Assembly (NCBI GenBank): GCA_900314565.1
Contig: OMVU01000009.1
Location: 1-53,027 of the forward strand
From: an uncultured Eubacteriales bacterium
GTDB taxonomy: Bacteria > Bacillota > Clostridia > Lachnospirales > Lachnospiraceae
Length of the DNA stretch: 53,027 nt
Direction of reading: 5' to 3'
The notes under the pieces were generated by a model. It saw nothing but the letters and a program-made list of their open reading frames with translations. It was not told where the DNA came from and did not search any database. Every line of letters starts with the position of its first letter. Positions within the stretch are counted from its first letter, which is position 1. Positions 1 to 52,993 of the stretch are shown one piece after another. Both the position numbers and the translations under genes were made by a program.

Positions 1-1
1 C

Positions 2-37
2 AATGCGTGGATCGCGGGCAGCCTGATCGGATACTAA
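2..37 (+). CDS. C-terminal end of an unidentified protein (cut by window edge)
   Basis: An open frame enters from the left edge and ends at TAA (35-37), giving the tail NAWIAGSLIGY. The hydrophobic composition would suit a membrane protein, but eleven residues do not allow a family call. An intrinsic terminator follows 34 bases downstream on the same strand, which supports a real gene ending here. Confidence 0.55.
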   Translation, partial: NAWIAGSLIGY

Positions 38-71
38 TTCAGAAGAATCAGAATATAATGACAAAATAAAG

Positions 72-109
72 GAGGTTCGGCTTCTATAAAAGGAGTCGGA
101 TCTCTTTTT
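72..109 (+). terminator. Intrinsic terminator of the gene entering from the left
   Basis: Thirteen-base-pair stem (72-84 with 92-104), loop TATAAAA, then a T run (105-109). Four of the pairs are G-U only when read on the plus strand, which assigns the direction. Confidence 0.8.
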
Positions 110-234
110 CATCTCAGTGAGAGCTGTCCTTTTCATGAGGCTGGGAAGCAGCAAATCAGTCTCACAACGGCGGTACCATCCCTCCTGAGATATGCACTCA
201 GCTCTGGAATGATCCACCAGAGGCTTCGGTAGAG

Positions 235-575
235 TTTGTTCTCCATGATTCTCGCTGTATTCCGGGCAATTAGGCACAGCGATCCTTTTCATCATGTTTG
301 TTCTCCCTCATTTTCGCTGTATTCCGGGCAATTAGGCACAGCGGTCACTTTCATCAAATTTGTTCTCCCTGATTTCTCTGATCTATGTAGTACAATCACA
401 GGAAATCTGCGGCCTGTGCCTAAAAGCCTTGACAGATGCAGAAATCATTGGAGAACAATCATAAGAAATCCGCCCCGTGTGCCTAAAACACCTCAGGAAG
501 ACAAAAATCCATGGGGAACATTCACAGAAAATCTCCCCTGTGTGCCTAACAGCCAATTCATGGGGATCAATTCAA
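235..575. repeat. 62/63-bp degenerate repeat array, three copies in each orientation
   Basis: Copies begin with TTTGTTCTCC at 235, 297 and 359 (period 62). From 393 the pattern continues inverted, with units at 393, 456 and 519 (period 63) carrying GGAGAACA and TGTGCCTAA, the complements of TGTTCTCC and TTAGGCACA. Only these two blocks are well conserved; the DNA between them has drifted. The two halves can pair with each other as a long imperfect hairpin. No gene was recognised here. The open frames in this stretch look like repeat artefacts. Confidence 0.75.
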
Positions 576-604
576 AAAAATTGTTCCTGTGTTTATTCAA
601 ATTC

Positions 605-791
605 GTGTTTTGCCAACTTATCCGTATTTCCCAGCCTTATATGTGGTTCCTGTTCGTCAGGCCAAGGATTTGCCTACAGCTTCCTTCAGATTCCACCTCG
701 CAATAGACACGCTTGCTGTTCAGCTATGTACTTCGTCGTTGCCTACGCGTACTCGAGTCTTTCACCCTTTAGAGCGCGCCCATGGCGCGCG
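605..791 (-). mobile_element. 5' remnant of a group II intron (domain I part, no reverse transcriptase)
   Basis: Read on the minus strand from about 791, the sequence starts with a GCGCGCC-ATG-GGCGCGC hairpin and runs through AAAGGGTGAAAGACTCG, AAGCGTGTCTATTGCGAG, GAATCTGAAGGAAGCTG, GGCCTGACGAACAGGAACC and CACATATAAGGC. This order of blocks is typical of the 5' domain of Firmicutes group II introns. The match fades after about 605. No domain V/VI and no maturase frame was seen, so this is a truncated copy. It lies just downstream, on the minus strand, of an intrinsic terminator and two hairpins, a common insertion context for some bacterial group II introns. Confidence 0.75.
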
Positions 792-797
792 AATCTT

Positions 798-884
798 CCC
801 TCCCCCTGCATAGCAGGGGGGTTACACAACCGGAAGCACTTGGGGGGCAGACCAGACGTCCCTCCCCCTGCACAGCAGGGGGAT
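798..884. repeat. Two copies of a CCCCCTGC/GCAGGGGG hairpin, 62 bp apart
   Basis: TCCCCCTGCATAGCAGGGGG (801-820) and a near-identical copy (863-882) each form an 8-bp GC stem with a three-base loop. They sit between the intron remnant and the minus-strand terminator. Their function is unknown. Confidence 0.7.
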
Positions 885-899
885 TATTTTGTCTGCGAC

Positions 900-942
900 A
901 CAACAAAAACAGCCGACACCGGCTCATCCGGTATCGACTGTT
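900..942 (-). terminator. Intrinsic terminator, probably of the ABC-2 operon
   Basis: Fourteen-base stem (909-922 with 929-942) with loop ATGAG on the minus strand, followed by TTTTTGTTG. Two positions pair as G-U only on the minus strand. It lies about 245 bases beyond the stop of the permease at 1188, so the 49-bp tandem repeats would be in that operon's 3' untranslated RNA. Confidence 0.75.
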
Positions 943-961
943 AATTTTTTCAGGCTGAATA

Positions 962-1152
962 CATTTCCACATTCATAATTCTTATTGGTCATCAGTCAGA
1001 CCTTCTTTGAAATTTCCACATTCATAATCCTTATTGGCCATAAGTCAGACCTTCTTTGAAATTTCCACATTCATAGCCCTTATTGGCCACCAGTCAGACC
1101 TTGTTTGAAATTTTCACATTCATAATCCTTATTGGTCATCAGTCAGACCTGT
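962..1152. repeat. Four tandem copies of a 49-bp unit
   Basis: Units start at 963, 1012, 1061 and 1110, exactly 49 bases apart, and carry ATTTCCACATTCATA, TTATTGGCCA and GTCAGACCTT with few substitutions. There are no unique spacers, so this is not a CRISPR array. Confidence 0.9.
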
Positions 1153-1163
1153 TTTAATTATAT

Positions 1164-1187
1164 TCCGGGTGAAAATCCGGGTGAAAA
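1164..1187. repeat. 12-bp tandem duplication abutting a stop codon
   Basis: TCCGGGTGAAAA occurs twice head to tail (1164-1175, 1176-1187). It ends exactly where the minus-strand stop codon of the permease begins (1188-1190). Confidence 0.85.
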
Positions 1188-1937
1188 TCAGAAGTCAAGC
1201 TCCTTTACGTGGAAGATCAGCTGCGACAGCGCCACCGCACCGCCTACAAAGATTACCATTCCCAGAACAAATGAAATGATCCCTCTCCCTGTCATTCCCA
1301 ACATGAAATTGGAATAGGCATTTCTAAGGAATCCGTCCAGATCGTAACGGGTCAGATTGTACCTCTTTACAATGAAGATGGCATTCAGCAGGCTCTTCAT
1401 AGTGCTTAACAATATGATCAGCACAATGTCCAGGATGATCCCCAACGGCATACTGTTCGTCAGATAAATAAACATTGCTGATATGGTCACATAGCCCAAT
1501 AACGCACAGACGTTCTGAAGATACTGCAGCACATACGCCTTTGTCTCGAATGCAGTCATATTCGTACCGAGCACAATTGCAATAAAATAATTAAAAACTG
1601 CCATGATCAGAAACATTCCGAAAAGAAGGATCACGCTGTCAAGGAACTTGGCGAACACGACCTTCGTTCTGGAAAAGCCTCGTCCGATTACCGTACTTAA
1701 TGCTCCGGATTTCTGATCATCGCCGTATACTCCAAGAAGCACTGCCAGACTGGTCAATAAGTATACGATTGGTGCAGGGACCCCTTTGTTCACGAAAACA
1801 AGTCCGTTCCAGATCGGATTCGATACATATCCGATGAAAACTGACATGGCGCACAAAAAAGCGCTTACTATGAACAATACCCAGACATTGACCTTTTTTA
1901 AAATTCTTCTCAAATCCGCTCTTATCAGTTTTCTCAA
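1188..1937 (-). CDS. ABC-2 type transporter permease subunit
   Basis: A 249-residue integral membrane protein and the last gene of a three-gene export operon. It starts MRKLIRADLRRILKKVNVW, a short cytoplasmic basic helix typical of ABC-2 permeases, followed by about six hydrophobic segments (near residues 18-37, 50-68, 95-120, 140-165, 168-190 and 215-240). It is clearly a paralogue of the gene before it, which starts MRNLLRADLRRILKRVSIY. Its start overlaps that gene's stop by four bases, so the two are probably translationally coupled. It likely forms a heterodimeric channel powered by the ATPase at 2650-3471. The substrate cannot be read from sequence; antimicrobial peptide or drug export is common for this type. 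The frame ends directly on a 12-bp tandem duplication. Confidence 0.88.
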   Translation of the reverse strand: MRKLIRADLRRILKKVNVWVLFIVSAFLCAMSVFIGYVSNPIWNGLVFVNKGVPAPIVYLLTSLAVLLGVYGDDQKSGALSTVIGRGFSRTKVVFAKFLDSVILLFGMFLIMAVFNYFIAIVLGTNMTAFETKAYVLQYLQNVCALLGYVTISAMFIYLTNSMPLGIILDIVLIILLSTMKSLLNAIFIVKRYNLTRYDLDGFLRNAYSNFMLGMTGRGIISFVLGMVIFVGGAVALSQLIFHVKELDF

Positions 1938-2653
1938 AACTCAATCTCCTTTTTCCTGAATACCAGAGCTGTAAGAAGGAGCGCTCCGCCAATATAAAGT
2001 ACAATCGCCAAAATCAGCGTATATCCGATATCTCCGGCCGCAATCGAAGCATAGGCATTGTCAATCATGCCGTTAAAATAGAATTCGCTGAAGTCTGTCT
2101 TCAGAAAACCATCCAGCATAGTGAACAGCATAGGCATCAGAAATGCCGAAACCAGAAGGGCAACGATACCGGGCGCGACGCTCCAGGCGATAAAGAAAAA
2201 GAATGTTGTAAATGCAAAGTATCCGCATGTCTTGATAAAAGCAAACAGGACAAAGATCGTCAGCATCTTATTCTGATTCGCTGTGAGACCGGCGTCACCC
2301 ACATTATTCCTGAGGAAAAATGCGAGCCAGATGAAAAAGAAGAAGAAGAGACACATGAGGACACATTCCAGATATTTTGTCAAAATAAGCTTAGTTCTGG
2401 ACATCCCTCTGCCAATGACACACTGCATGGATCCTGCCTGAATCTCTCTCCCGTATACACCGAGAAAGACCGGGATCGAGACCATAATAGGTCCCAGAAG
2501 CGATGTCACGCCCTGCTCCATGCCGACAATATCGGCAGTATAGTCCTTGCTCAGCGCACTTAAAAAGAATATGACAAAAATCAGGAAAAGCCAGACATAA
2601 ATCGATACTCTTTTCAGTATCCTGCGAAGATCCGCTCTCAATAGATTTCTCAT
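1934..2653 (-). CDS. ABC-2 type transporter permease subunit
   Basis: A 239-residue integral membrane protein, middle gene of the operon. It has the same N-terminal basic amphipathic helix and six predicted membrane segments as its downstream paralogue, including a strongly aromatic stretch (LFFFFFIWLAFFL) near residue 112. Four-base ATGA overlaps on both sides (2650-2653 with the ATPase, 1934-1937 with the next permease) indicate one transcript and coupled translation. The conserved stretch around GRGMSRTKLILTKYLE (residues about 82-97) is shared with the neighbour (GRGFSRTKVVFAKFLD) and probably contacts the ATPase. No extracellular domain is present. Confidence 0.88.
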   Translation of the reverse strand: MRNLLRADLRRILKRVSIYVWLFLIFVIFFLSALSKDYTADIVGMEQGVTSLLGPIMVSIPVFLGVYGREIQAGSMQCVIGRGMSRTKLILTKYLECVLMCLFFFFFIWLAFFLRNNVGDAGLTANQNKMLTIFVLFAFIKTCGYFAFTTFFFFIAWSVAPGIVALLVSAFLMPMLFTMLDGFLKTDFSEFYFNGMIDNAYASIAAGDIGYTLILAIVLYIGGALLLTALVFRKKEIEF

Positions 2654-3471
2654 TCCGTGCGTCCTCCGACAAGGTCGAAGTAGAAATCTTCCAGAGAAGA
2701 CTGCTCTTCCACCTCTTTTAAAATCCTGACACCGCCGTCCGAAAGGAGCTTGCGGGCTTTCTCGAGATCATCCACCCTGATTTCGATTGCCGGCTCTTTT
2801 TCTTTCAGATCGTCATGTGTAATCTCCCGCAGTAACGTCCCCTCGTGGACAAAGCCGAATTTGTCAGCAGTGTGTTCCAGCTCACCGAGAATGTGTGAAG
2901 ATACGATAACAGTCATCCCAAACTCATCCCGGAAGCGCTTGATCATATTTCTGACATCGGCAATTCCCTGAGGATCCAGGCCGTTGGTCGGCTCATCAAG
3001 GATCAGGATCTCCGGATTTCCAAGAAGCGCATTCGCGATCCCGAGTCTCTGCTGCATACCAAGAGAATATCCCTTGAAAGGTGTCTTTACGTTCTGAAGA
3101 CCGACGATCGTGAGGACTCTGTCGATTTCCTTCTTCATCTCCCTTGCAGGGATTCCCTTGACGGTAGCAAAGTATTTCAGATTGTTCCTGGCATTCATGT
3201 ATCCGTAGAACTTTGTACCTACAAGGAACCCGATTTTTCCGCGGTTCTGATACAGCTCCTTCTCTGTTTTTGAGCCGGCGATCGATACGTTCCCCGAATC
3301 TCTCTCGCTGAGTCCGAGAATCATTTTAAAAATTGTTGTCTTTCCCGCTCCGTTCTTGCCGACAAGTCCATAGATGTCTCCCTTGTTGACCTGCATATCG
3401 ACATTTTTGAGAACCTGATGACTCCCGTAGTTTTTTACGACCTGATCCAGTTTAATAATTGCTTCTCCCAT
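2650..3471 (-). CDS. ABC transporter ATP-binding protein (ABC-2 exporter)
   Basis: A 273-residue ATPase that energises the two ABC-2 permeases encoded after it. Walker A GKNGAGKTT (residues 38-46), signature YSLGMQQR (135-142), Walker B ILILDEP (155-161) and the H-loop SSH (191-193) are all present. A C-terminal extension of about 60 residues follows the core, as in BcrA/CcmA-like exporters. The open frame extends 46 codons upstream into a dispersed repeat. The start chosen is ATG at 3471 because GAGGAAGGA lies just before it and the family begins there. First gene of the operon. No two-component system is adjacent. Confidence 0.92.
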   Translation of the reverse strand: MGEAIIKLDQVVKNYGSHQVLKNVDMQVNKGDIYGLVGKNGAGKTTIFKMILGLSERDSGNVSIAGSKTEKELYQNRGKIGFLVGTKFYGYMNARNNLKYFATVKGIPAREMKKEIDRVLTIVGLQNVKTPFKGYSLGMQQRLGIANALLGNPEILILDEPTNGLDPQGIADVRNMIKRFRDEFGMTVIVSSHILGELEHTADKFGFVHEGTLLREITHDDLKEKEPAIEIRVDDLEKARKLLSDGGVRILKEVEEQSSLEDFYFDLVGGRTE

Positions 3472-3519
3472 AATGAATCCTTCCTCAAAGAACAGTTGCA
3501 AACCATAATAGGTAAGTTT

Positions 3520-3698
3520 CAAGAACGCCTCGGCGTTCTTGACGCGACGTGCGCGGCGCGTAAGCGCCTTCCACTGCGCACGTCTGCGATCCGCCGCTTT
3601 ATTCTTCATCGCGAGATTGTACTCACGATGAAGGCTAATATCACTTTGCGCGCATATCTCATGTCTGAAAACACGAGTATTTCGCGATGAAGAATAAA
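3520..3698. repeat. Composite intergenic element: hairpin module plus 101-bp element with 17-bp inverted ends
   Basis: The left part (3520-3597) holds AAGAACGCCTCGGCGTTCTT, a perfect 20-base palindrome, then a GC-rich hairpin-prone stretch. The right part (3598-3698) is 101 bp and begins TTTATTCTTCATCGCGA and ends with its exact reverse complement. The same composite, inverted and also with a 101-bp right part, is at 31589-31773. Partial copies occur elsewhere in the window. It has no coding capacity, so it resembles a MITE/REP-type element. It stops one base from the stop codon of the M13 peptidase. Confidence 0.85.
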
Positions 3699-3699
3699 T

Positions 3700-5772
3700 T
3701 TACCAGACAGAAATCCGTTTATCCGGCTCAAGGTACATGCCATCACCCGTCTTTATATCATAAATCTCATAGAATTTTTCGAACTGCTGAAGCGTTACGT
3801 TTATCCTCAGGTAAGCGAGCGGATGCGGATCTCCTTTCACAAGAGAAATCTCCGCATCGGTCGATCTCTGCGTCGCCCAGACGAGGGCCCATTTGCGGAA
3901 AAAAGCATCGTAGTTAAATCCGGGAAGCTTCTCTGCTGCTTTAAGAGCAATGCGTACACCGCCCATATCCGCGATCGCCTCCTTATTTACAGCTCCGCTT
4001 CCGTAATTTCCTGATCCGGAGAACAGATACAGACTCGAGTAATAAGCCGAGACTTTATCAGCTCTGTCATTGAACGCCTGCTGATCTTCTTCAGGCATCC
4101 AGGGCCGTTCGCTTCCGTCCTTATTATATCGGACGCCGCCGTCATCAAATCCATGGGTGATCTCGTGCCCTACTACAATAGCGAGACCTCCGTAAAGATC
4201 TTCATCTGTTATTCCTTCATAAAAGACAGGCATATCGACAATGCCGGCGCAGATGTAAATACCATTATACTGCGGTGAATAAAACGCATTGGTCTGCAGC
4301 GTATTCGTCATAGCATCATAAGGATCCCAGACAGCCCGGTCAAAGTTCCTTGCTACCTTTTTTCCTCTTGCGGCCAGTGACGCTTTCCGCGCTTCAAAAT
4401 AAGCCTCGACCAGATTGCCCCCCTGCTCAGCCGGCACGATATTTAAATCGCTGAAATCGAGCAGCTCGTTATTCGGGAACATAACATGAATACACATAGC
4501 ATCAAGCTTTTCAACAGCAGCCTGTTTTCCCGCATCAGACAGCCAGGACTCTTCCATGATCACATCGCGGAACGCATCGATCAGATTTTTCGTCAGTGTC
4601 TCGAGGCGTTCGATATTGGCCGGGTTCATATACCTGTCAACATAGGCCTGATTGATCGCAGCCATCAGCGCAGTATGTTTGTTGATCTCTTCAAAGAAAT
4701 GATACTCGTCACTTTCTTCATCGCTCAAAGATTTGTCCTGCGGATTTTCCGGATTTACATTAGACCCTTTGGTCTCTTCCATTACTGCAATTGCATCGGA
4801 ACCCACCAGATCGGCGACCTCAAAGAGATACCTCACGATCAGGTAAGACTTGATCTCGGAGATATGAGACTCGTTACAGAGCTGATCCAGCTGATTGACA
4901 TAACCGATATCCATCATATACTGAGGAGCATCCTGAAATCCCCATGCATCCAGATAGGCAAGGATCGGATAGTTCTTCGCCGCCTCCTGCACATCAGTCC
5001 TGCTATAGCTGAGATTTCTGGCCTCATTCTGAGACAGAATGTTGCTGTTTCTGGCAATTGCCTTCTCAAAGCTGTAATTTTCATCAATGATCCGCTTAAC
5101 ATCGGAGGCTTCATATCCCAGATTTTCAAGGAAAACGGACAGCACCTCATTGAGCATCTCTACCTGCGTGAGCGCTTCGTCAGTCAGATCAAAATACAAA
5201 TCATCCTGCAGGCACAGACCGCCGTGCTCAAGCAAGGTCATATAAGCGGTCGGATCCGTGTAGGACTGGCCCGACTGGCCTATTACGAGAGGCGCTGCTC
5301 CAAGCGGATTCATCGCAGGATCACAGATCCAAGCATAGAGACTTTCCGTATCTTTTATTGCCTCGATTCCGTCGATATACTTTTTTACAGGTTCCCATCC
5401 CAGTCTGTCCCTGGTCTCCATGTCTTCAAGCAGGGCACCGTACTTTCGTACTTCTTCTATTCCCTTGCCGGTCACCGTCGTATCTTCAAGCAGGGTACGC
5501 TTTTTCTTCAGTACGTTGGTGAGCACTTCAAGCATTGTGGACGCTCCTCTCCCATCAGAATGTGCGAGGATCCAGTCCTTGTTGACCGCCGCGGCATAAT
5601 CATCCTGCAGGCGGACATCAGTCTCCGCTGTTACCGTGCCGGCAATGTCGCTCGCGATCCACTTCTGCTTTATCCCGGCCATTTGCAGAATTTCGCCTTC
5701 AGAGCAGCCGGTCATCAGCAGGCTGAGCATGAGCACGATCACAATTGTAAACGATATGATTCTTTTTCTCAT
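3700..5772 (-). CDS. M13 family (neprilysin/PepO-type) zinc metallopeptidase, lipoprotein
   Basis: A 690-residue protein predicted to cleave short peptides outside the membrane. The N-terminus is a lipoprotein signal: basic RKR, a hydrophobic core, then lipobox LMTGC with Cys23. The catalytic C-terminal half has the substrate-binding NAFYSP (495-500), zinc site HEITH (536-540) with the third ligand in EAIAD (598-602), His650/Arg656 in DPHPLAYLRINVT, and the family's typical C-terminal end with Trp690 (ISVW). The length is normal for M13. ATG at 5772 follows AAAAGGAGC. It is monocistronic by context, with a composite repeat downstream and a 23-bp tandem repeat upstream. Confidence 0.95.
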   Translation of the reverse strand: MRKRIISFTIVIVLMLSLLMTGCSEGEILQMAGIKQKWIASDIAGTVTAETDVRLQDDYAAAVNKDWILAHSDGRGASTMLEVLTNVLKKKRTLLEDTTVTGKGIEEVRKYGALLEDMETRDRLGWEPVKKYIDGIEAIKDTESLYAWICDPAMNPLGAAPLVIGQSGQSYTDPTAYMTLLEHGGLCLQDDLYFDLTDEALTQVEMLNEVLSVFLENLGYEASDVKRIIDENYSFEKAIARNSNILSQNEARNLSYSRTDVQEAAKNYPILAYLDAWGFQDAPQYMMDIGYVNQLDQLCNESHISEIKSYLIVRYLFEVADLVGSDAIAVMEETKGSNVNPENPQDKSLSDEESDEYHFFEEINKHTALMAAINQAYVDRYMNPANIERLETLTKNLIDAFRDVIMEESWLSDAGKQAAVEKLDAMCIHVMFPNNELLDFSDLNIVPAEQGGNLVEAYFEARKASLAARGKKVARNFDRAVWDPYDAMTNTLQTNAFYSPQYNGIYICAGIVDMPVFYEGITDEDLYGGLAIVVGHEITHGFDDGGVRYNKDGSERPWMPEEDQQAFNDRADKVSAYYSSLYLFSGSGNYGSGAVNKEAIADMGGVRIALKAAEKLPGFNYDAFFRKWALVWATQRSTDAEISLVKGDPHPLAYLRINVTLQQFEKFYEIYDIKTGDGMYLEPDKRISVW

Positions 5773-5839
5773 TCTGCTCCTTTTCCCTTTCGTTAATTTG
5801 TATCTTTTTTCTAAAAATCAAATCCGGTACACAAAATAA

Positions 5840-5932
5840 TTCTCATCTGGTTCCCGAAATAATACTCATCTGATCCTCGAAATATTTTTCATCTGATTCC
5901 CGAAATATTCTTCATCTGATTCCCGAAATGAT
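5840..5932. repeat. 23-bp tandem repeat (four units) running across a stop codon
   Basis: Units with core TTCATCTGATTCCCGAAAT recur at 5842, 5865, 5888 and 5911 (period 23). Read on the minus strand, each unit ends in TGA. The first of these is the stop codon of the adenosine-deaminase-like gene (5912-5914), and that gene's last codons (ISGIR) are encoded by the same unit. Confidence 0.88.
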
Positions 5933-8353
5933 CTCCGGGCTCTCCGACCCGTCGATCAGCTTCGCATATCCCTCAAGCATCTTTGCCTTGGAAGTCAGCA
6001 GGCCTGCGTGCGAACTGACAAAAATCTGGGCCTTCTTTTTCCCGTTCCTTGCCTCCTGGACAACATTGATCGCGGAAGAGTTTCCGTCGATTGCGATAAC
6101 GACGGATGGCCTCCGCTTGAAGATCTCGTAGGAAAAGCTCTTATAAAGGCCGAGTCCCGTCGGCTCGATGGAAATTCGGATACCAAGGTCATATCTGCGG
6201 AGACGTCCGGCCTCAGTAAGCGTGATCTGTGTCGGTACGATCGCAAAGATCCTGAACTTATGACCGGCCAGATCTGCGAGCTCCCGCTCGTAGCCGAGAA
6301 GCCTGTGACCGATAACAAAAAACACTTTCTGAGGATCTGCCTTCTTTACCAGCTCCTCAATGAAAAGCCTGAATTCCTCTTTTACCCGCGTATGGTGATG
6401 GTCATTGTTGAAGCTTCCGCCGAGGAGGACGACCGGCAAAGCGTCTGTCGGCATTTCCCGGATCTGTGCGGAAAGGACTTCCGCGCTCTCGACCTTGCCC
6501 GGAGGCGTCTGGTACGAGCTCTCCGGTCCCTTCTCTTCGCTGATTCTCCTCTCATAGAAAAGACGCACATCCTCCCCGCCATTTATGCGTGTAAAATTCT
6601 TCTTCTTTTCCTCAAAGACGTTCATACTGTCCCGAAGGACCAGATTCTCGGCCTCTTTCATGGCCATCAGTTCCTCATACGTCAGATCCAGCATCCTCTC
6701 CAGCGCGAGCTGCTCATCGATGGAATCCGTTCCATAGATCGCGCCTCCGTCCGTTCCCTGCACACAGAGAATATCTTCTTTCAGGTACTGCTTTAGCGGG
6801 TGCTGTTTCAGCGTGCTGAGGTTGTTGAGCCGGACATTCGATGTCAGCTGAAATTCCAGGACGACCCGGTCCGACCGCAGTGTGCGGAGAAGCTCCTTCC
6901 CTCTCTCCGTCTTCAAATTAGGAGTATACAGACCGTGGCCGATCCGGACACGGGGCATTTTCTGGCCGGGCAGGAGCGCCTCCCGGACGCACTGTACGCT
7001 TTTTTCAACATTATCCCTGAGTCCGTCATTTTCTCCGGCGTGGATCCGGATCACGAAGCCCGGGTTGTCCGCCGCAATGCTGACCAGTTCGGCAAGGACG
7101 GGCTTGAGATCCCTGATATCATTGATCTCCTCCCCGATGATATCGCTGCCGGCGATATAGGGATCAGCTGCCGTTGCACGAAGCGTCCTCAGCTGGTCCC
7201 GCAGGACCTGCCGGGACTCGACATTATCTTTGACGATCGTCAGAGGGATCCGTCGGAAGGATGCAAGGAAACGCAGGGTAACGCCGGTCTCCGCCGTGAT
7301 GTCCGGCATGGACGCGTGAAGGAAGGCAAGGACTTTTGGAGCATCCGCCGGCTTGACCAGACTCGTATCGGAGATCTCAGCGTAGACGATCCCTCTCTTC
7401 TTACAGCCCCGGGCAATCCATAGCAGCTTGTTCTGGTACAGCGTGTAGTCCGCAAATCTCGGATCCAGGCGGTCCGCCTCCATCTGCCGCAGTGCATCCG
7501 TGATCTCCCTGTCCGGGATCTTCTCTGCGTTCGTCAGCGCAATCTTCTCCTCCGACTTGATGCCTTTTGCGAAGACGTAACGGTAGAGGTAGACCTTCTC
7601 AAGATTTGAGAAAACAGCCTGGCCATCCTTCAGGATCGTGAGCGACGCGCGGATCCGGGGCAGATTGTGGTCAGCATTTTCCAGATTATTCAAAATGAAG
7701 TCCGCAAAGTTGATAAATGTATTGTCATCGATCCTCCGGACCTTGTACTTTCCCTGCAGGGGAGAATCCTTAAAGCGCTTCGCCACCTCCTTCCGCTCCT
7801 CTTCCAGCCTGGTCTGCTGAGCCGGACTGGGAATGAGCCCGAGCTTCTTTATATAGTACAGCGGGTAGCGGATCTGATGACGGATGCCCAGCGCTATGAG
7901 GATATCCGCATCCAGGTTCGCATTCATATGCGTATGCAGGTCGGTCCGGAACTTATGCTCCCGCCGGATGTAGGTCTTCACGAGGGTCTTGCGAAAATCC
8001 AGATGATAGTCCTTTGTCTGGCTCATGAGCGTCTTGGCAATCGCCGGCACGTAGGCCTTTCTCTCAATTTCACCGTCCGGATAAATGTTCGCCACCTTCG
8101 TATCATTCAGACGGAAGACATAGACCTCCCGGTTGTCCCCGTCTATATAGCAGGGAATCTCGCCCCGAATGACTTTGAGACCGCTCTCGTCGAAACTGAT
8201 CGGCAGATTACAGAGCGAGGCAAGGTTCGTGATCAGATTCCCGGTCTTATGGTAGGGCGTCCGGAGAATGTAGGAGAGCTGAGCGTCCTTGCTGTAGAGC
8301 TCCACAATAATATCTTTTTCCTTATCCAGATAGAACTGACCGAATTTCTGCAT
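5912..8353 (-). CDS. Large adenosine-deaminase-like protein with C-terminal SLOG/Rossmann-like domain
   Basis: 813 residues, more than twice the length of ordinary adenosine deaminase. The metal-dependent hydrolase motifs are in order: HTH in DLHTHMN (138-144), HAGEND (438-443), RIGHG (470-474), LTSN (503-506) and TD in GTDGG (533-537). Zinc ligands and catalytic Glu/His/Asp therefore look intact, though the usual second Asp of the last motif is Gly. A large insertion separates the first two motifs. Residues about 640-800 form a separate alpha/beta domain with VVLLGGSFNND, VIGHRLLGYERELADL and VVIAIDGNSSAINVVQEA, reminiscent of SLOG-type nucleotide-binding folds. ATG 8353 is preferred over an upstream start because AAGGAGTC precedes it. 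Likely role: nucleoside or nucleotide deamination, perhaps ligand-regulated. A relative of RADAR RdrB is possible, but no RdrA-like ATPase is adjacent. Confidence 0.7.
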   Translation of the reverse strand: MQKFGQFYLDKEKDIIVELYSKDAQLSYILRTPYHKTGNLITNLASLCNLPISFDESGLKVIRGEIPCYIDGDNREVYVFRLNDTKVANIYPDGEIERKAYVPAIAKTLMSQTKDYHLDFRKTLVKTYIRREHKFRTDLHTHMNANLDADILIALGIRHQIRYPLYYIKKLGLIPSPAQQTRLEEERKEVAKRFKDSPLQGKYKVRRIDDNTFINFADFILNNLENADHNLPRIRASLTILKDGQAVFSNLEKVYLYRYVFAKGIKSEEKIALTNAEKIPDREITDALRQMEADRLDPRFADYTLYQNKLLWIARGCKKRGIVYAEISDTSLVKPADAPKVLAFLHASMPDITAETGVTLRFLASFRRIPLTIVKDNVESRQVLRDQLRTLRATAADPYIAGSDIIGEEINDIRDLKPVLAELVSIAADNPGFVIRIHAGENDGLRDNVEKSVQCVREALLPGQKMPRVRIGHGLYTPNLKTERGKELLRTLRSDRVVLEFQLTSNVRLNNLSTLKQHPLKQYLKEDILCVQGTDGGAIYGTDSIDEQLALERMLDLTYEELMAMKEAENLVLRDSMNVFEEKKKNFTRINGGEDVRLFYERRISEEKGPESSYQTPPGKVESAEVLSAQIREMPTDALPVVLLGGSFNNDHHHTRVKEEFRLFIEELVKKADPQKVFFVIGHRLLGYERELADLAGHKFRIFAIVPTQITLTEAGRLRRYDLGIRISIEPTGLGLYKSFSYEIFKRRPSVVIAIDGNSSAINVVQEARNGKKKAQIFVSSHAGLLTSKAKMLEGYAKLIDGSESPEIISGIR

Positions 8354-48284: not shown

Positions 48285-49052
48285 ATGACCATAATAAAGA
48301 ACGAGATACCTATTCTGGAGTATGATACAGATCCGTCAGGCGTGATTATGCCAGATCACGAACATATAAATATCAACTTTCCTAAGAAAGCAGTATTCGC
48401 TTTCCTTCGTGACGATGTAGACCGGTACGCGAAAGAGCATAATGCGGTGGCTGTAGCCCATTTTGAATCGGCAACAAAGGAATACCCCGTTTTCATTCTT
48501 GACGTGGATGGACAGCAGACTTGTCTTGTGCAGGCTCCGGTAGGTGCGCCTGCTGCAGCCCAGATCCTGGACTGGCTTATCGCTTATGGTGTCCGAGAGA
48601 TAATCAGCTGCGGCTCTTGTGGCGTATTGGTTGATATCCCCGAAAACGCATTTTTGGTTCCTTGCAAAGCACTTAGAGACGAAGGAACTTCATATCACTA
48701 TCTTCCGCCTGAACGGTTTGTTGATGTTTCTGAAAAGGCACGCCATGCCATTGAGAAAACGATGAAGAATCATGGCCTTCCTTATATGGAAGTTGTTACG
48801 TGGTCAACAGACGGCTTCTTCCGAGAAACAAAAGAGAAAGTGGCGTACAGGAAAAGTGAAGGGTGTTCGGTTGTTGAAATGGAATGCTCTGCGCTTGCGG
48901 CTTGTGCTAAGATGCGTGGTGCAATTTGGGGAGAACTCCTCTTTACGGCTGACACTCTTGCAGATGCGGAGCACTACGATGAACGCAACTGGGGCGATGA
49001 TTCCCCATCTTATGCGTTGGAATTGTGTATTGAGGCGGTCTTGAATATTTAA
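48285..49052 (+). CDS. Nucleoside phosphorylase (uridine/purine phosphorylase superfamily)
   Basis: 255 residues. Family features: VGAPAAAQILDWLIAYGVREIISCGSCG (phosphate and base site region), DEGTSYHYLPP (about 139-149), a VVEMECSALAACAKMRG stretch (about 200-216) with the ribose-binding MxE, and the LFTADTL loop. It cleaves nucleosides with phosphate; base preference is unclear. No membrane or signal segment. A weak GGAGTG site precedes ATG. Followed by a methyltransferase 24 bases on. Confidence 0.9.
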   Translation: MTIIKNEIPILEYDTDPSGVIMPDHEHININFPKKAVFAFLRDDVDRYAKEHNAVAVAHFESATKEYPVFILDVDGQQTCLVQAPVGAPAAAQILDWLIAYGVREIISCGSCGVLVDIPENAFLVPCKALRDEGTSYHYLPPERFVDVSEKARHAIEKTMKNHGLPYMEVVTWSTDGFFRETKEKVAYRKSEGCSVVEMECSALAACAKMRGAIWGELLFTADTLADAEHYDERNWGDDSPSYALELCIEAVLNI

Positions 49053-49075
49053 CTACGGAAACTATGGAGGAAAAA

Positions 49076-49858
49076 ATGAATTTTCTTGAACAATACTACA
49101 ACAATTATGACGAAGAGGGGCGCCTGCTTTCTCGTCATGGGCAGGTGGAATACCTGACCACGATGAGATACATAGAAGAAGCTCTGGAAGGCATTTCAAC
49201 TCCAAGCATCCTTGAAGTAGGCGCAGGCACAGGACGCTACAGTGTGACATTGGCAAAGCAAGGGCGGCAAGTAACTGCTGTTGAGCTGATTGAGCATAAT
49301 CTGGAAATACTGAAATCCAAATTAGAAGGTACGGAACCCATCACAACATTCCAGGGAAATGCTTTGGATCTGTCCCAGCTTTCTGACAATTCTTTCGATC
49401 TGACCATGTTGCTCGGTCCGATGTATCACCTTTACACGAAGGAAGAAAAGCTGCAAGCACTTTCTGAAGCGGTGCGTGTGACAAAACCAGGCGGTTATAT
49501 CCTGGTGGCTTATTGTATGAATGAGCCGACCGTCATACAGTATGTATTCGGTCTGAACCATCTGCATGAAGTGATGGAACTCAATATGCTAACCTCTGAC
49601 TGGCATTGTATAAGTGAGCCGAAGGATCTTTTTGAGATGGTGCGCACAGAAGAGATTGCGGACTTGGATTCGGCGGTTCCTGTGAAAAGAATCAAACTGG
49701 TCGCTACAGATGGGGCGACGAATTATATGCGAGAGTACATTGACGTCATGGACGATGAAACTTTTGATAAATGGATGGATTATCATCTCACGATCTGTGA
49801 ACGACAGGATTTGATTGGGGCCTCCCACCACACGTTGGATATACTCCAGAAAAAGTGA
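49076..49858 (+). CDS. Class I SAM-dependent methyltransferase
   Basis: 260 residues. Motif I is ILEVGAGTGRYS (about 45-56), the acidic post-motif TAVELIEHN, NSFDLTMLLGPMYHL (motif IV region) and VTKPGGYILVAY. The C-terminal 90 residues form a variable substrate domain. Substrate unknown. GGAGG lies just before ATG 49076. Likely an operon with the nucleoside phosphorylase. A terminator follows. Confidence 0.9.
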   Translation: MNFLEQYYNNYDEEGRLLSRHGQVEYLTTMRYIEEALEGISTPSILEVGAGTGRYSVTLAKQGRQVTAVELIEHNLEILKSKLEGTEPITTFQGNALDLSQLSDNSFDLTMLLGPMYHLYTKEEKLQALSEAVRVTKPGGYILVAYCMNEPTVIQYVFGLNHLHEVMELNMLTSDWHCISEPKDLFEMVRTEEIADLDSAVPVKRIKLVATDGATNYMREYIDVMDDETFDKWMDYHLTICERQDLIGASHHTLDILQKK

Positions 49859-50068: not shown

Positions 50069-50842
50069 TTAATAGATTATCTGTCTCTTTTTTTTCCAGT
50101 CAACCGCTTCCAGATATGTGTCACATTCATCATGAATTCCGACAAGTTCGCACCATCTGGCTGACAAAAGCCTGGCGTACTGGATCGGGTCAGCTCCGTA
50201 GCATCCAAGTGCAAACCCATCGTTGATCTCCACCAGCAATGTCTGCCCTTTTTCCGTCACGCCTATATCCATCGCATATCCTGCCGGTGCACTTTTAAAT
50301 GCTTTTACGGCCTGTTCCAGAATCTCAGGATCAAAATTCCTGTGCCAGTCTCCTCTATAAGGGCGAACGTCCCAGATATTCCCATACCTCACAAACGCCC
50401 TCCATTCTGTGTCAAAACTGACCAATTCACTGCAGAGAACCGGTTCATCAGATTTTGCCTGCCTGCGTCTGGGGACATCCTTCTCCGATTGCAGAATAAA
50501 TCCGACAAATACTTTATCCTTAACAGGTTTCACAAACACAGGCCATTGTTCCTGTTTTGACAGAATCCCTTCCAGCGTATCATTCCATACTCTGCGCCCC
50601 AGAAAGCAAGATAATTCTTCCGGATAATCATACTCAGATATTTGAATACCATACTCATTCAGTTTTCGTGTAATCGTAGAAACTCCGCCTACGATCAAAT
50701 CATCCGGCGTGCAACCTGATAATTCTTTGTCATTTGAGTAGAAAATCGGCTTGAAGCCAAGTTCCCGGAACCCCTGCCAGGCATTGTAATCTGTCTCTGT
50801 TTCCGGAAACCCATTCATATCTGTTTTAATGAATATTCTCAT
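50069..50842 (-). CDS. ATP-grasp ligase, R2K clade (partner 2)
   Basis: 257 residues. ATP-grasp features: FVKPVKDKVFVGFIL with Lys105, EWRAFV (146-151), the acidic MDIGVT (about 191-196) and LLVEINDGFALGCYG with metal-binding Glu205/Asn207 (204-209). The pattern is that of the R2K families of ATP-grasp enzymes, predicted to form peptide- or amino-acid-type amide bonds. The pre-ATP domain is short (about 90 residues). Its start overlaps the stop of the other ATP-grasp gene by four bases (50839-50842). Last gene of the cassette. No terminator was located after it. Confidence 0.82.
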   Translation of the reverse strand: MRIFIKTDMNGFPETETDYNAWQGFRELGFKPIFYSNDKELSGCTPDDLIVGGVSTITRKLNEYGIQISEYDYPEELSCFLGRRVWNDTLEGILSKQEQWPVFVKPVKDKVFVGFILQSEKDVPRRRQAKSDEPVLCSELVSFDTEWRAFVRYGNIWDVRPYRGDWHRNFDPEILEQAVKAFKSAPAGYAMDIGVTEKGQTLLVEINDGFALGCYGADPIQYARLLSARWCELVGIHDECDTYLEAVDWKKKRQIIY

Positions 50843-51705
50843 ATTTTCATATCCTTTACCGCCTGATATAAAGCCCTGTAATATGCAGCTGCATCCTGAC
50901 CCGGAGACAATCCGGACACGCCCCCGTCTCCGGCTTCAATTATTTTCCACGTCCCATCTGTCAGCTCAGCATAGTCGATTGTGTAATACAGACTTTTCAA
51001 GCCTGAATATTTGTTAATTAGTTGCTCGGGAGGCATGCGGGTATAGCCCGGCTGTCCGGAGTTCCTGCTCAAACTGATGATTTCATGGTTCGCATAGAAT
51101 ACGCGGAATTCATTGGTCTTCCCGTCACAGCGTTTCAGATCCAGATATTCCTTAATACAGATTCCACCTGTCAGCAAATCACCCCTGTATTTATAAAAAA
51201 CCTGCATCCATTCATCGAATCCCTGCTGTGTCACGTTACGATCGAAAAATGCAGGGAACTCAGTCCCTTTTACTGACTTTACACTGTCCTTGACCATAAA
51301 CCTTGAGAATGTCCTTTTGACTGTCTCCACATCAACGTCACCGCTTTCAAATATCATCATGCCTGCAGTATCTTCCCTTATGTCCGGGTAGACATTTGGA
51401 AACAAATGCAGATTCTGATATTCCTCCGGAGATGTAAGCAGTCGAATGCCCTGAGATTCAAGATCTGAGTAAAATTTTTCATATTCATTCGGTTTCAGCA
51501 TCCAGCCGCGATAAATCACGGGATTAGTAACACTCTCATCCGTTCTTATTTTGAGCTTATCTCCCGCAAGCCATTCATCATAATTAAAAAGTACCGTCCG
51601 GAACAAACCGGTTTCTTTGGCAGCAAGATATTCCTCCCGCATATCCTCTTCAATCTCCCGGAAATTCATATAACTTCCTGGAAAGAGCAATGTCATCCTG
51701 CTCAT
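50839..51705 (-). CDS. ATP-grasp ligase, R2K clade (partner 1)
   Basis: 288 residues. N-terminal pre-grasp region with VIYRGWMLKPNEYEKFYSDL and LLTSPEEYQNLHLFPNVYP, typical of R2K family 3. Lys residues in SRFMVKDSVKSVKGTEFP (about 134-151), NEFRVFYANHEI (198-209) and the metal-site KIIEAGDGGVSGL (254-266). Together with the next gene it makes a co-translated ligase pair. GAGGAGAAA precedes ATG 51705; an in-frame GTG lies 18 bases upstream. Substrate unknown. Confidence 0.82.
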   Translation of the reverse strand: MSRMTLLFPGSYMNFREIEEDMREEYLAAKETGLFRTVLFNYDEWLAGDKLKIRTDESVTNPVIYRGWMLKPNEYEKFYSDLESQGIRLLTSPEEYQNLHLFPNVYPDIREDTAGMMIFESGDVDVETVKRTFSRFMVKDSVKSVKGTEFPAFFDRNVTQQGFDEWMQVFYKYRGDLLTGGICIKEYLDLKRCDGKTNEFRVFYANHEIISLSRNSGQPGYTRMPPEQLINKYSGLKSLYYTIDYAELTDGTWKIIEAGDGGVSGLSPGQDAAAYYRALYQAVKDMKI

Positions 51706-51719
51706 TTTCTTATTTCTCC

Positions 51720-52100
51720 TCACCCAAATGCGTTATCGCGCTTAAATGTATTCCTGTTTCGTTCACGAGCCAGCTCCTCCATTACATGATAGCCATTCTC
51801 ATCAACAGGAATTCCCTTCCGTGCCATTTCATCAATTACAAATTCCAAAGGAAATCCATATGTCTCAAACAGGCAATACGTAAACACTCCCGATAGAATC
51901 GGCTCCGGACTGTATTCAAAATAAACACACTCTTCCTCCAGTTTCACCATGGTATGATGGAAGAAAACCGGTCTTCGTATCGCAAGGGTGTACCCGTTCT
52001 CAAAAGTAAAGCGATAATGATCTTCCTTACGGTTAAATATCGTTTTTTTGAGCTTTCCGATCCGGTTCCGCCGGCCGTTCACAATCGTGCCAATCTCCAT
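51720..52100 (-). CDS. Alanyl-tRNA-synthetase-derived fragment protein
   Basis: 126 residues from ATG 52100. Residues about 70-126 (GVFTYCLFETYGFPLEFVID, then RKGIPVDENGYHVMEEL and a final DNAFG) match the segment of alanyl-tRNA synthetase just after its catalytic core (TYGFPxDL...VDExGFExxM...FG). The class II active site and the editing domain are absent. ATG 52100 has no ribosome site. An excellent one (AAGGAGGAGCTGAC) precedes ATG 52144, but there the frame stops after seven codons. One extra G in the run of five (52138-52142) would join them. Encoded 14 bases before the ATP-grasp pair. Confidence 0.72.
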   Translation of the reverse strand: MEIGTIVNGRRNRIGKLKKTIFNRKEDHYRFTFENGYTLAIRRPVFFHHTMVKLEEECVYFEYSPEPILSGVFTYCLFETYGFPLEFVIDEMARKGIPVDENGYHVMEELARERNRNTFKRDNAFG

Positions 52101-52172
52101 GTTCTGAATCAGTTTGAAATTCAGCTTAAATTTTCTGCCCCCATGTCAGCTCCTCCTTCGTGTTATAACATG

Positions 52173-52236
52173 CAGAATCGTCAGATTCTGAAAAATAAAA
52201 GAGCCGCTTCACAGAATGGCTTCTGCAAGGCGGCTC
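52173..52236 (-). terminator. Intrinsic terminator after the small Ala-rich peptide gene
   Basis: On the minus strand GAGCCGC/GCGGCTC with internal CAGAA/TTCTG is followed by TTTTATTTTT (52191-52236). A second hairpin CAGAATC-GTCA-GATTCTG lies at 52173-52190. It would separate, fully or partly, the peptide gene from the downstream enzyme genes. Confidence 0.8.
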
Positions 52237-52258
52237 CGGTTACCAGAACAATGAATTA

Positions 52259-52399
52259 TCACTTCGTCTCCTGTATTCGGATGACTGAGTGACCAGACGG
52301 ACCGCCTGAAAAAGCCTTTGCTGCAAGCCAAGAAGCACGCGCGCCTTCGGCTGCCCGTGCTGCAAATGCTGCATCTGCTTTATTCATGCGGTACATCAT
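52259..52399 (-). CDS. 46-residue Ala-rich small protein (possible substrate peptide of the ATP-grasp cassette)
   Basis: Starts MMYRMNKADAAFAARAAEGA, then RASWLAAKAFSGGPSGHSVI and a short charged end. GAGGGG lies seven bases before the ATG and a terminator follows, so it looks like an expressed gene. The first 30 residues would form an amphipathic helix; the rest is Gly/Ser/Pro-containing and flexible. No family recognised. Its position, immediately upstream of the AlaRS fragment and two ATP-grasp ligases on the same strand, with a terminator in between, is like a precursor peptide followed by modifying enzymes. This is inference only. Confidence 0.55.
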   Translation of the reverse strand: MMYRMNKADAAFAARAAEGARASWLAAKAFSGGPSGHSVIRIQETK

Positions 52400-52420
52400 A
52401 ATCGACCCCTCGTTTCAAGT

Positions 52421-52620
52421 GATATTACTTATAGTAAAAGTAATATCATCGGAACCGCTTCGCGAACCCGATGATCATAATTCGGGCGATTCCATCGCCC
52501 TTTTATCGGGAGTTCCTTACGGAACTTCCGATAAGATATATTACTTGCAATATACTCCCAAAATCCGGCCAGAGCAACAAGAAATTTGAAAAACGCCCAG
52601 ACATGTCGCTCTCGAGCGAC
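52421..52620. repeat. Cluster of short palindromes at the right end
   Basis: GATATTACTT/AAGTAATATC (52421-52447), GGGCGAT/ATCGCCC (52484-52500), TATCGG-G-AGTTCC/GGAACT-T-CCGATA (52504-52533) and TGTCGCT-CTCG-AGCGACA (52603-52620). No gene in this stretch. Function unknown. Confidence 0.6.
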
Positions 52621-52922: not shown

Positions 52923-52993
52923 TTTGTGAAATCTTGGGTTGAAACTGCCTCTCACACGGGGCCTTCGTTTTGTGAAATCTCAAGTTGAAGACC
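52923..52993. repeat. Two direct repeats at the window edge
   Basis: TTTGTGAAATCTTGGGTTGA (52923) and TTTGTGAAATCTCAAGTTGA (52968), 45 bases apart. This could be the end of an insertion sequence or another repeat family. The window stops before it can be resolved. Confidence 0.5.

What the first reader, a model, noticed from the sequence alone, without database searches (positions are those of the whole stretch)
50069..52399. Compact cassette: small Ala-rich peptide, AlaRS-derived fragment and two R2K ATP-grasp ligases
Four minus-strand genes in 2.3 kb with four-base or 14-base junctions: a 46-residue peptide gene with its own RBS and terminator, a 126-residue protein whose C-terminal half is recognisably alanyl-tRNA synthetase, and two different R2K ATP-grasp enzymes. 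ATP-grasp enzymes ligate carboxylates to amines, and an AlaRS-derived piece could bind tRNA or alanine. Together with a possible precursor peptide this suggests an undescribed peptide-tailoring or tRNA-linked ligation system. Seen: motifs, spacing, terminator. Known: ATP-grasp chemistry and the AlaRS motif. Inferred: joint function.
Basis: partly seen in the sequence, partly recalled or inferred. Interest (0 to 1): 0.78.

Follow-up and report, generated by a model that had tools for sequence, protein, structure and literature searches.

The report
Known ligase pair beside AlaRS-like orphan
Two neighbouring genes encode a pair of ATP-driven ligases of an already described kind, carried on what looks like imported DNA; a one-off protein ending in a piece of alanyl-tRNA synthetase sits in front of them, and the small peptide gene beside them seems unrelated.

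Summary
The genes are there, but they form separate units. (1) Window 50069-51723 encodes an R2K.3 and an R2K.2 ATP-grasp protein, clear family matches with the published hallmark motifs. Linkage of these two families was reported in 2015 (PMC4431377, section 7). (2) The 126-codon ORF upstream is a chimera: residues 61-126 match the end of the AlaRS tRNA-recognition domain (35.3 bits; best of 2000 shuffles 3.3); residues 1-60 match nothing. No stand-alone relative is listed for the genus (42 genomes), family (299) or class (236) samples, and none lies beside R2K genes in 31 other loci. (3) The 46-codon peptide gene lies 158 nt away behind a strong terminator-like hairpin. Its first 95 nt are identical in one congener, G331, in which no R2K gene and no AlaRS-like short ORF was found. 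The peptide is therefore probably not the ligases' substrate. Best reading: a mobile two-ligase module of a known kind plus one orphan AlaRS-derived protein that may be an adaptor or a useless chimera. Joint peptide tailoring is not supported.

The parts
50069..50842 (-). R2K.2-family ATP-grasp protein, 257 aa (R2K_B), ExN motif EIND
   Evidence: PF18299 5.1e-53, PF14243 3.1e-36; K105, K110, E205, N207 invariant in 5 aligned sequences, window included
50839..51723 (-). R2K.3-family ATP-grasp protein (R2K_A), 294 aa from GTG 51723 or 288 aa from ATG 51705 (the likelier start), ExGD motif EAGD
   Evidence: PF14243 5.9e-21, PF18299 1.1e-8; ExGD in 12 of 12 R2K.3 sequences, window included; K145, K149, K152, E263, G265, D266 invariant in these 12; 4-nt ATGA overlap with R2K_B
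51720..52100 (-). 126-aa orphan chimera (Ala126): residues 1-60 unknown, residues 61-126 = end of the AlaRS tRNA-recognition domain, up to the stop
   Evidence: weak codon evidence that the frame is coding
52121..52144 (-). 7-codon frame with the only good Shine-Dalgarno sequence (AGGAGG 52157-52152) just upstream of Ala126, in another register
   Evidence: direct reading; may be a coupling leader or the trace of a changed 5' end
52200..52237 (-). strong terminator-like hairpin followed by a T-rich tract, between the peptide gene and Ala126
   Evidence: -24.6 kcal/mol, z -6.32; sequence; not listed by the consensus scan, probably because the stem is interrupted
52259..52399 (-). 46-codon Ala-rich ORF (pep46), separate unit, probably not part of the ligase module
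   Evidence: no family hit below E 0.2; first 95 nt identical in G331:C255, the only credible match besides G000 in 42 genus genomes
52443..52544 (.). about 100-nt dispersed triple-hairpin repeat upstream of pep46; absent at the G331 site
   Evidence: matches in 12 of 42 genus genomes, 14 in G000 with the window's own counted and only 11 of 67 candidates scored; z -7.04; G331 lacks it

Best explanation
A horizontally acquired pair of R2K ATP-grasp ligases. R2K.3 (51723-50839) and R2K.2 (50842-50069) are translated in a coupled fashion and most likely act one after the other: each uses ATP to activate a carboxylate as acyl-phosphate and joins it to an amine, so that a protein target receives an amino acid or short peptide in two steps. 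Ala126, co-directional and 14 nt upstream, is most likely an accessory protein whose AlaRS-derived helices bind a partner (an RNA acceptor end or the target), or else a chimera without function. pep46 is a separate unit behind its own terminator. Shown: family membership, motifs, junctions, independent occurrence. Inferred: import, ligase chemistry, two-step order, target, role of Ala126.
For: Family scores. ExGD and ExN hallmarks in all sampled sequences (12 and 6), judged against the definitions in PMC4431377. 4-nt overlap. R2K.2 and R2K.3 co-occur beyond chance in 299 family genomes: 10 have R2K.3, 5 have R2K.2, 3 have both (Fisher p 2.6e-4, or 4.7e-3 without the window's genome). Adjacent in L062, and flanking an ADP-ribosylglycohydrolase in G088, the published arrangement. 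Import: GC 44.1% over 50069-52100 against 52.5% over 6001-47000; third-position GC 0.45-0.47 against 0.66-0.69 in two genes nearby; only 2 of 42 genus genomes, G000 and G316, have PF14243 over its cut-off. Relatives in phage, plasmid and viral-contig collections.
Against: No R2K.2 or R2K.3 protein has a demonstrated activity in anything read here. CDC123, the studied R2K.1 member, is described as an eIF2 assembly chaperone with ATPase activity, and 'ligase' occurs 0 times in that paper's main text. Most R2K loci seen lack the other family: 2 of 31 hold both. No target gene is linked. No credible solved relative by sequence (none; one thiolase row at E 0.063). Low GC is not special to this end of the window: bases 1-6000 have 46.5%. 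The promoter scan found fewer sites than its shuffles (3 against 6.9).
Confidence: 0.5

Rival explanations
1. Ala126 is a non-functional chimera or remnant: an AlaRS gene end fused by chance to other DNA, carried along with the ligases.
For: No relative listed in 42 genus, 299 family and 236 class genomes other than AlaRS-length frames. All 10 phage-record hits are AlaRS: 8 opened lie in frames of 642 codons or more, 2 are annotated alaS. Pattern scans of IMG/VR and GTDB confirm none. Of 32 plasmid-collection hits 16 are annotated alaS; the rest carry no annotation there and were not opened. Invariant AlaRS residues are changed, e.g. D to E at positions 79 and 86, 30 of 30 AlaRS having D. No Shine-Dalgarno sequence at its ATG; a strong one opens a 7-codon frame in another register. 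The codon evidence is weak: the antisense ORF 51954-52292, presumably spurious, has a similar codon-position GC (0.48/0.39/0.46) and nearly the same codon score.
Against: Only 40% identity to its own genome's AlaRS over residues 65-126 with an open frame: a fragment that old would be expected to have collected stops without selection. Its frame scores best of the six over its own span under two codon models (0.089 and 0.112 bits per codon; next -0.047 and 0.017). It sits directly in front of R2K_A, whose ribosome-binding site overlaps its end.
Confidence: 0.38
2. tRNA-linked ligation: Ala126 holds the acceptor end of a tRNA (perhaps tRNA-Ala) and hands an aminoacyl group or the tRNA to the R2K enzymes.
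For: The retained piece includes the loop with the G3:U70-reading Asp (D400 in E. coli, PMC10036535 passages; mapped). That paper also mentions a natural split inside the same domain in Nanoarchaeum AlaRS. Aminoacyl-tRNA synthetase paralogues are known beside ATP-grasp ligases in other systems (PMC2922099 passages).
Against: The Asp is Glu here, the Asn partner region, catalytic core, editing and C-Ala domains are absent, and ATP-grasp enzymes in general do not need tRNA (recalled). No second case.
Confidence: 0.12
3. RiPP-like system: pep46 is the precursor peptide tailored by the two R2K enzymes.
For: Small Ala-rich ORF with a ribosome-binding site close by on the same strand; its start is conserved in G331.
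Against: Terminator-like hairpin between them; no R2K at E 0.001 and no Ala126 in G331, though it is 78% complete and its contig ends inside the peptide gene; 0 of 31 R2K loci carry it. R2K enzymes are not the graspetide ligases (recalled).
Confidence: 0.05
4. pep46 and the hairpin are a leader-peptide attenuator, or a structured RNA, that controls the operon behind it.
For: Ala-rich frame, hairpin 21 nt after its stop, strong folding of 52145-52440 (z -4.52) and of the ORF itself (z -4.15); 95 of 95 nt identical in G331 while the upstream flank is 80% and stretches around the AlaRS gene 84-90% identical.
Against: No Rfam match at gathering score in this region and only chance-level ones below it. 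No alternative antiterminator was worked out. What follows in G331 is unknown because the contig ends.
Confidence: 0.2
5. The R2K proteins are ATP-dependent assembly chaperones, like CDC123 for eIF2, not ligases.
For: CDC123 works as an eIF2 assembly chaperone and ATPase (PMC12860950 passages).
Against: R2K.2 and R2K.3 are separate families, for which PMC4431377 predicts active ligases from retained catalytic residues; no partner complex is linked here.
Confidence: 0.2

Closest known systems
R2K.2 / R2K.3 operons (Burroughs, Zhang, Aravind 2015, PMC4431377)
   Same: One gene of each family side by side on one strand; hallmark motifs; sporadic, phage- and plasmid-borne relatives
   Different: An AlaRS-derived ORF lies upstream; no ADP-ribosylglycohydrolase or GNAT gene between or next to them in what the contig shows
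CDC123 (R2K.1)
   Same: Same ATP-grasp clade with two lysines
   Different: Other family; CDC123 acts on eIF2 assembly in eukaryotes
AlaRS tRNA-recognition domain / split and mini AlaRS (PMC10036535)
   Same: Ala126 residues 61-126 align with the end of that domain
   Different: Ala126 has no catalytic, editing or C-Ala domain, and Glu for the G3:U70-reading Asp
aaRS paralogues in non-ribosomal peptide synthesis (PMC2922099)
   Same: aaRS-derived protein near ATP-grasp ligases
   Different: Those are class-I synthetase-like proteins in metabolite operons; this is a 66-residue class-II piece without active site

Membership tests
R2K.2 | Match to PF18299 above its cut-off | tested here: met
   R2K_B 179.3 vs 26.2 bits; R2K_A also passes (35.5), so the motif decides
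R2K.2 | Two lysines in the RAGNYA region and a final ExN motif | tested here: met
   K105, K110, E205, N207 invariant in 5 sequences; which lysine is which is inferred
R2K.3 | Match to PF14243 above its cut-off | tested here: met
   R2K_A 75.8 vs 26.3 bits; R2K_B also passes (125.5), so the motif decides
R2K.3 | ExGD in the last strand instead of ExN | tested here: met
   EAGD; ExGD in 12 of 12 R2K.3 sequences, window included
R2K.2-R2K.3 operon | Both genes adjacent on one strand in several genomes | tested here: met
   Window, L062, and G088 with one gene between
R2K clade | ATP-dependent amide ligation | not testable with these tools
   predicted only, in PMC4431377
Alanyl-tRNA synthetase | Catalytic core with class-II motifs 1-3 | tested here: not met
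   Only AlaRS profile columns 377-442 of 879 are aligned
Alanyl-tRNA synthetase | Asn and Asp reading G3:U70 | tested here: not met
   Asp replaced by E79, Asn region outside the aligned piece
RiPP system with pep46 as precursor | Precursor gene conserved beside the tailoring enzymes | tested here: not met
   0 of 31 R2K loci; occurs in G331, where no R2K was found
T-box or other known leader RNA | Rfam match | tested here: not met

The most novel reading that the evidence does not exclude
Ala126 is the first stand-alone AlaRS tRNA-recognition piece turned into an adaptor: its AlaRS helices bind the acceptor end of tRNA-Ala (or an Ala-bearing substrate), its N-terminal domain docks on the R2K pair, and the two ligases add alanine-derived tags to a protein in a tRNA-guided way.
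Probability: 0.08. Interest if true: 0.8.

Novelty: new variant of a known kind. Interest (0 to 1): 0.33.

Why it matters
Nothing read here reports the chemistry or target of R2K.2/R2K.3 proteins, although they recur on phages, plasmids and bacterial genomes. A compact, coupled pair with a small accessory protein is a convenient unit to express and test. The AlaRS-derived piece, if functional, would be an unusual reuse of a synthetase part.

Tried and rejected
Rejected: one four-gene system (co-occurrence survey negative). Rejected: the N-terminal half of Ala126 also being AlaRS. Some pairwise hits align residues 11-126 with full AlaRS, but the profile alignment covers only 61-126 (its envelope starts at residue 20). 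Rejected: defence-system membership by library (no PADLOC match). Rejected: a pep46 relative near an R2K.2 gene in G684 (10 of 20 residues inside a 558-codon ORF, chance) and the weak family hits (best E 0.003, inside a 626-codon frame). Led nowhere: single-sequence fold of Ala126 (mean pLDDT 47.6; strands in 2-42 and helices in 67-123 at low confidence, so no fold search was run); pep46 in plasmids and by pattern in IMG/VR; N-terminal half in phages (E 2 or worse). Weak: codon-position GC as proof of coding, because the antisense ORF looks alike; after seeing this I raised the remnant rival from 0.35 to 0.38. Not done: tree of Ala126, metagenome scans (none allowed), alternative-fold analysis of the leader, opening of the unannotated plasmid-collection hits. 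Literature searches for a stand-alone AlaRS piece or an AlaRS-linked R2K operon: (listings seen; 5 papers opened: PMC4431377 outline, passages and sections 5 and 7; PMC7824862, PMC2922099, PMC10036535 and PMC12860950 passages only). None describes it in what was seen.

Rows dropped: 4 of 34 AlaRS frames shorter than 850 aa were left out of the AlaRS profile, and one of 35 loci gave no frame. One sequence first put into the R2K.3 alignment (L044b) proved to be RlaP and was dropped. One search used 31 loci, some near-identical (L146/L147; L151/L152/L154) and one with a broken R2K copy (L126); L061, L129 and L130 were left out of it, but the AlaRS profile found nothing in them. The match list was cut at the weak end, and one search listed only E 1e-6 or better.
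Full report
What is there. The window is the whole of contig C86 of a 4.2-Mb, 191-contig genome, G000. On its minus strand lie a 257-aa ORF (50069-50842), a 294-aa ORF (50839-51723), a 126-aa ORF (51720-52100) and a 46-aa ORF (52259-52399). The first two overlap by ATGA. The second can start at GTG 51723 or, with a GAGGAG site in front and in line with its homologues, at ATG 51705, which leaves 14 nt after the 126-aa ORF. The 46-aa ORF stands apart: 158 nt and a strong terminator-like hairpin (52237-52200, -24.6 kcal/mol, z -6.32; not listed by the consensus scan) lie between it and the 126-aa ORF. So three genes are packed, not four.

The ligases. The 257-aa protein is R2K_2 (PF18299, 5.1e-53; also PF14243, 3.1e-36) and the 294-aa protein R2K_3 (PF14243, 5.9e-21; also PF18299, 1.1e-8). 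Burroughs et al. 2015 (PMC4431377; sections 5 and 7 read) define R2K.3 by an ExGD motif in place of ExN. The 294-aa protein has EAGD, and 12 of 12 aligned R2K.3 sequences, window included, have ExGD; the 257-aa protein has EIND, and all 6 of its set have ExN. The same paper reports R2K.2 and R2K.3 genes linked in one operon in certain Firmicutes and actinobacteria, sometimes around an ADP-ribosylglycohydrolase gene. I see the same: R2K.2 then R2K.3 in L062, a Lachnospiraceae MAG contig, and R2K.2, ADP-ribosylglycohydrolase (PF03747, 2.6e-73), R2K.3 in G088. Of 299 family genomes 10 have R2K.3 and 5 have R2K.2 at E 1e-6 (one of the 5 only as a contig-edge fragment, G009), and 3 have both (Fisher p 2.6e-4, or 4.7e-3 without G000). 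In G092 the two lie on different contigs. Of 391 class genomes 4 have PF18299 over the cut-off, G000 included and one with stops inside. Relatives occur in 12 phage records (R2K.2), 10 plasmid records (R2K.3), 15 plasmid records (R2K.2) and some IMG/VR contigs (1, 9 and 1 loci). The pair is thus a known, mobile kind. The segment looks imported: GC 44.1% over 50069-52100 against 52.5% over 6001-47000, third-position GC 0.45-0.47 against 0.66-0.69 in two genes a few kb away. Bases 1-6000 are also low (46.5%), so this is an indication, not proof.

The AlaRS-like protein. Pfam gives tRNA-synt_2c at 3.9e-6, under its cut-off; NCBIfam gives alaS at 1e-4; PDB AlaRS chains are the best sequence hits. 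A profile from 30 full-length AlaRS sequences scores it 35.3 bits over residues 61-126; the best of 2000 shuffles scored 3.3 (1273 printed). The piece is the end of the tRNA-recognition domain and its last residue is a Gly conserved in 30 of 30 AlaRS. The Asp that reads G3:U70 in AlaRS (D400 in E. coli, PMC10036535 passages) falls on E79 here; all 30 AlaRS have Asp. The numbering step from chain position 399 to residue 400 is my inference. Residues 1-60 match nothing.

Is it a gene? For: an open frame at 40% identity to its genome's AlaRS, the best codon score of the six frames over its span under two models, and its place in front of R2K_A. Against: codon-position GC (0.51/0.34/0.46) resembles the R2K genes, but the antisense ORF 51954-52292 gives 0.48/0.39/0.46 and nearly as good a codon score (0.077 and 0.049 against 0.089 and 0.112). 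No relative is listed in 42 genus, 299 family and 236 class genomes (all other matches listed lie in frames of 564 codons or more; the list was cut and one search shows E 1e-6 or better only). All 10 phage-record hits are AlaRS (8 opened, frames of 642 codons or more; 2 annotated alaS). Plasmid-collection hits: 16 of 32 annotated alaS, the others not opened. The scans find close relatives only and confirmed none. The 5' end is odd: the only good Shine-Dalgarno sequence serves a 7-codon frame in another register.

The peptide. pep46 matches no family below E 0.2. In the genus only G331 has a credible match: 95 of 95 nt from its ATG are identical, up to that contig's end, whereas the flank upstream is 80% and stretches around the AlaRS gene 84-90% identical. 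G331 shows no R2K match at E 0.001 and no Ala126, but is 78% complete. In 299 family genomes the next best hit is E 0.003, inside a 626-codon frame. The region folds strongly (z -4.5; ORF alone z -4.15), so a leader peptide or an RNA element is possible; Rfam has no match here. A 100-nt hairpin repeat (52443-52544), found in 12 of 42 genus genomes, sits just upstream and is missing at the G331 site.

Co-occurrence test. In 31 loci with R2K genes none has an AlaRS-like ORF (profile E 0.01), an Ala126 relative or pep46 (blastp E 1e-3); 2 hold both R2K families. Contigs that end near the gene (L062 3.0 kb, L050, L060, L125) and near-identical viral contigs limit this.

Mechanism. Most likely: two coupled ATP-grasp ligases that act in turn on a protein target, as PMC4431377 proposes for this pair (prediction, no assay). 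Ala126 may be an adaptor or a useless chimera; one case cannot decide. A serious rival for the enzymes is an ATP-driven assembly role as for CDC123 (PMC12860950 passages).

Verdict. Observation partly confirmed, joint-system reading not supported, ligase pair known, AlaRS-derived orphan unexplained. Interest 0.33.

Noticed in passing
L044 5594-6349 with 4739-5590 (G128): An R2K.3 gene directly beside RlaP, the RNA-repair pathway polymerase-beta protein (PF10127, 6.8e-89), which hints at RNA or tRNA repair contexts for R2K.3.
   Followed up: partly
L049 6172-7823, L051 6228-7857, L044 6720-8469: R2K.3 genes in three genomes lie near a short protein of similar N-terminus (radical SAM, PF04055, tested for L049 only) and a 334-372 aa protein without Pfam match; a recurring neighbourhood not mentioned in the parts of PMC4431377 that I read.
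   Followed up: partly
window 52443-52544: A roughly 100-nt repeat folding into three hairpins (z -7.04), dispersed and often in tandem at about 95-nt spacing, in 12 of 42 genus genomes; an empty site in G331 suggests it moves.
   Followed up: partly
window 48285-49858: A phosphorylase-superfamily gene and a methyltransferase gene on the plus strand share the low third-position GC of the ligase genes, so the imported segment may reach to about 47 kb.
   Followed up: no
window 530-707: Group II intron D1-D4 piece on the minus strand (Rfam RF02001, 63 bits).
   Followed up: no
window 52923-52989: Two 21-nt direct repeats with 46-nt spacing close to the contig end, possibly the edge of a mobile element.
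   Followed up: no
L145 3410-4918: On a Deinococcus plasmid an R2K.3-like gene lies beside a macro-domain gene and between IS6 copies, again linking R2K to ADP-ribose functions.
   Followed up: no
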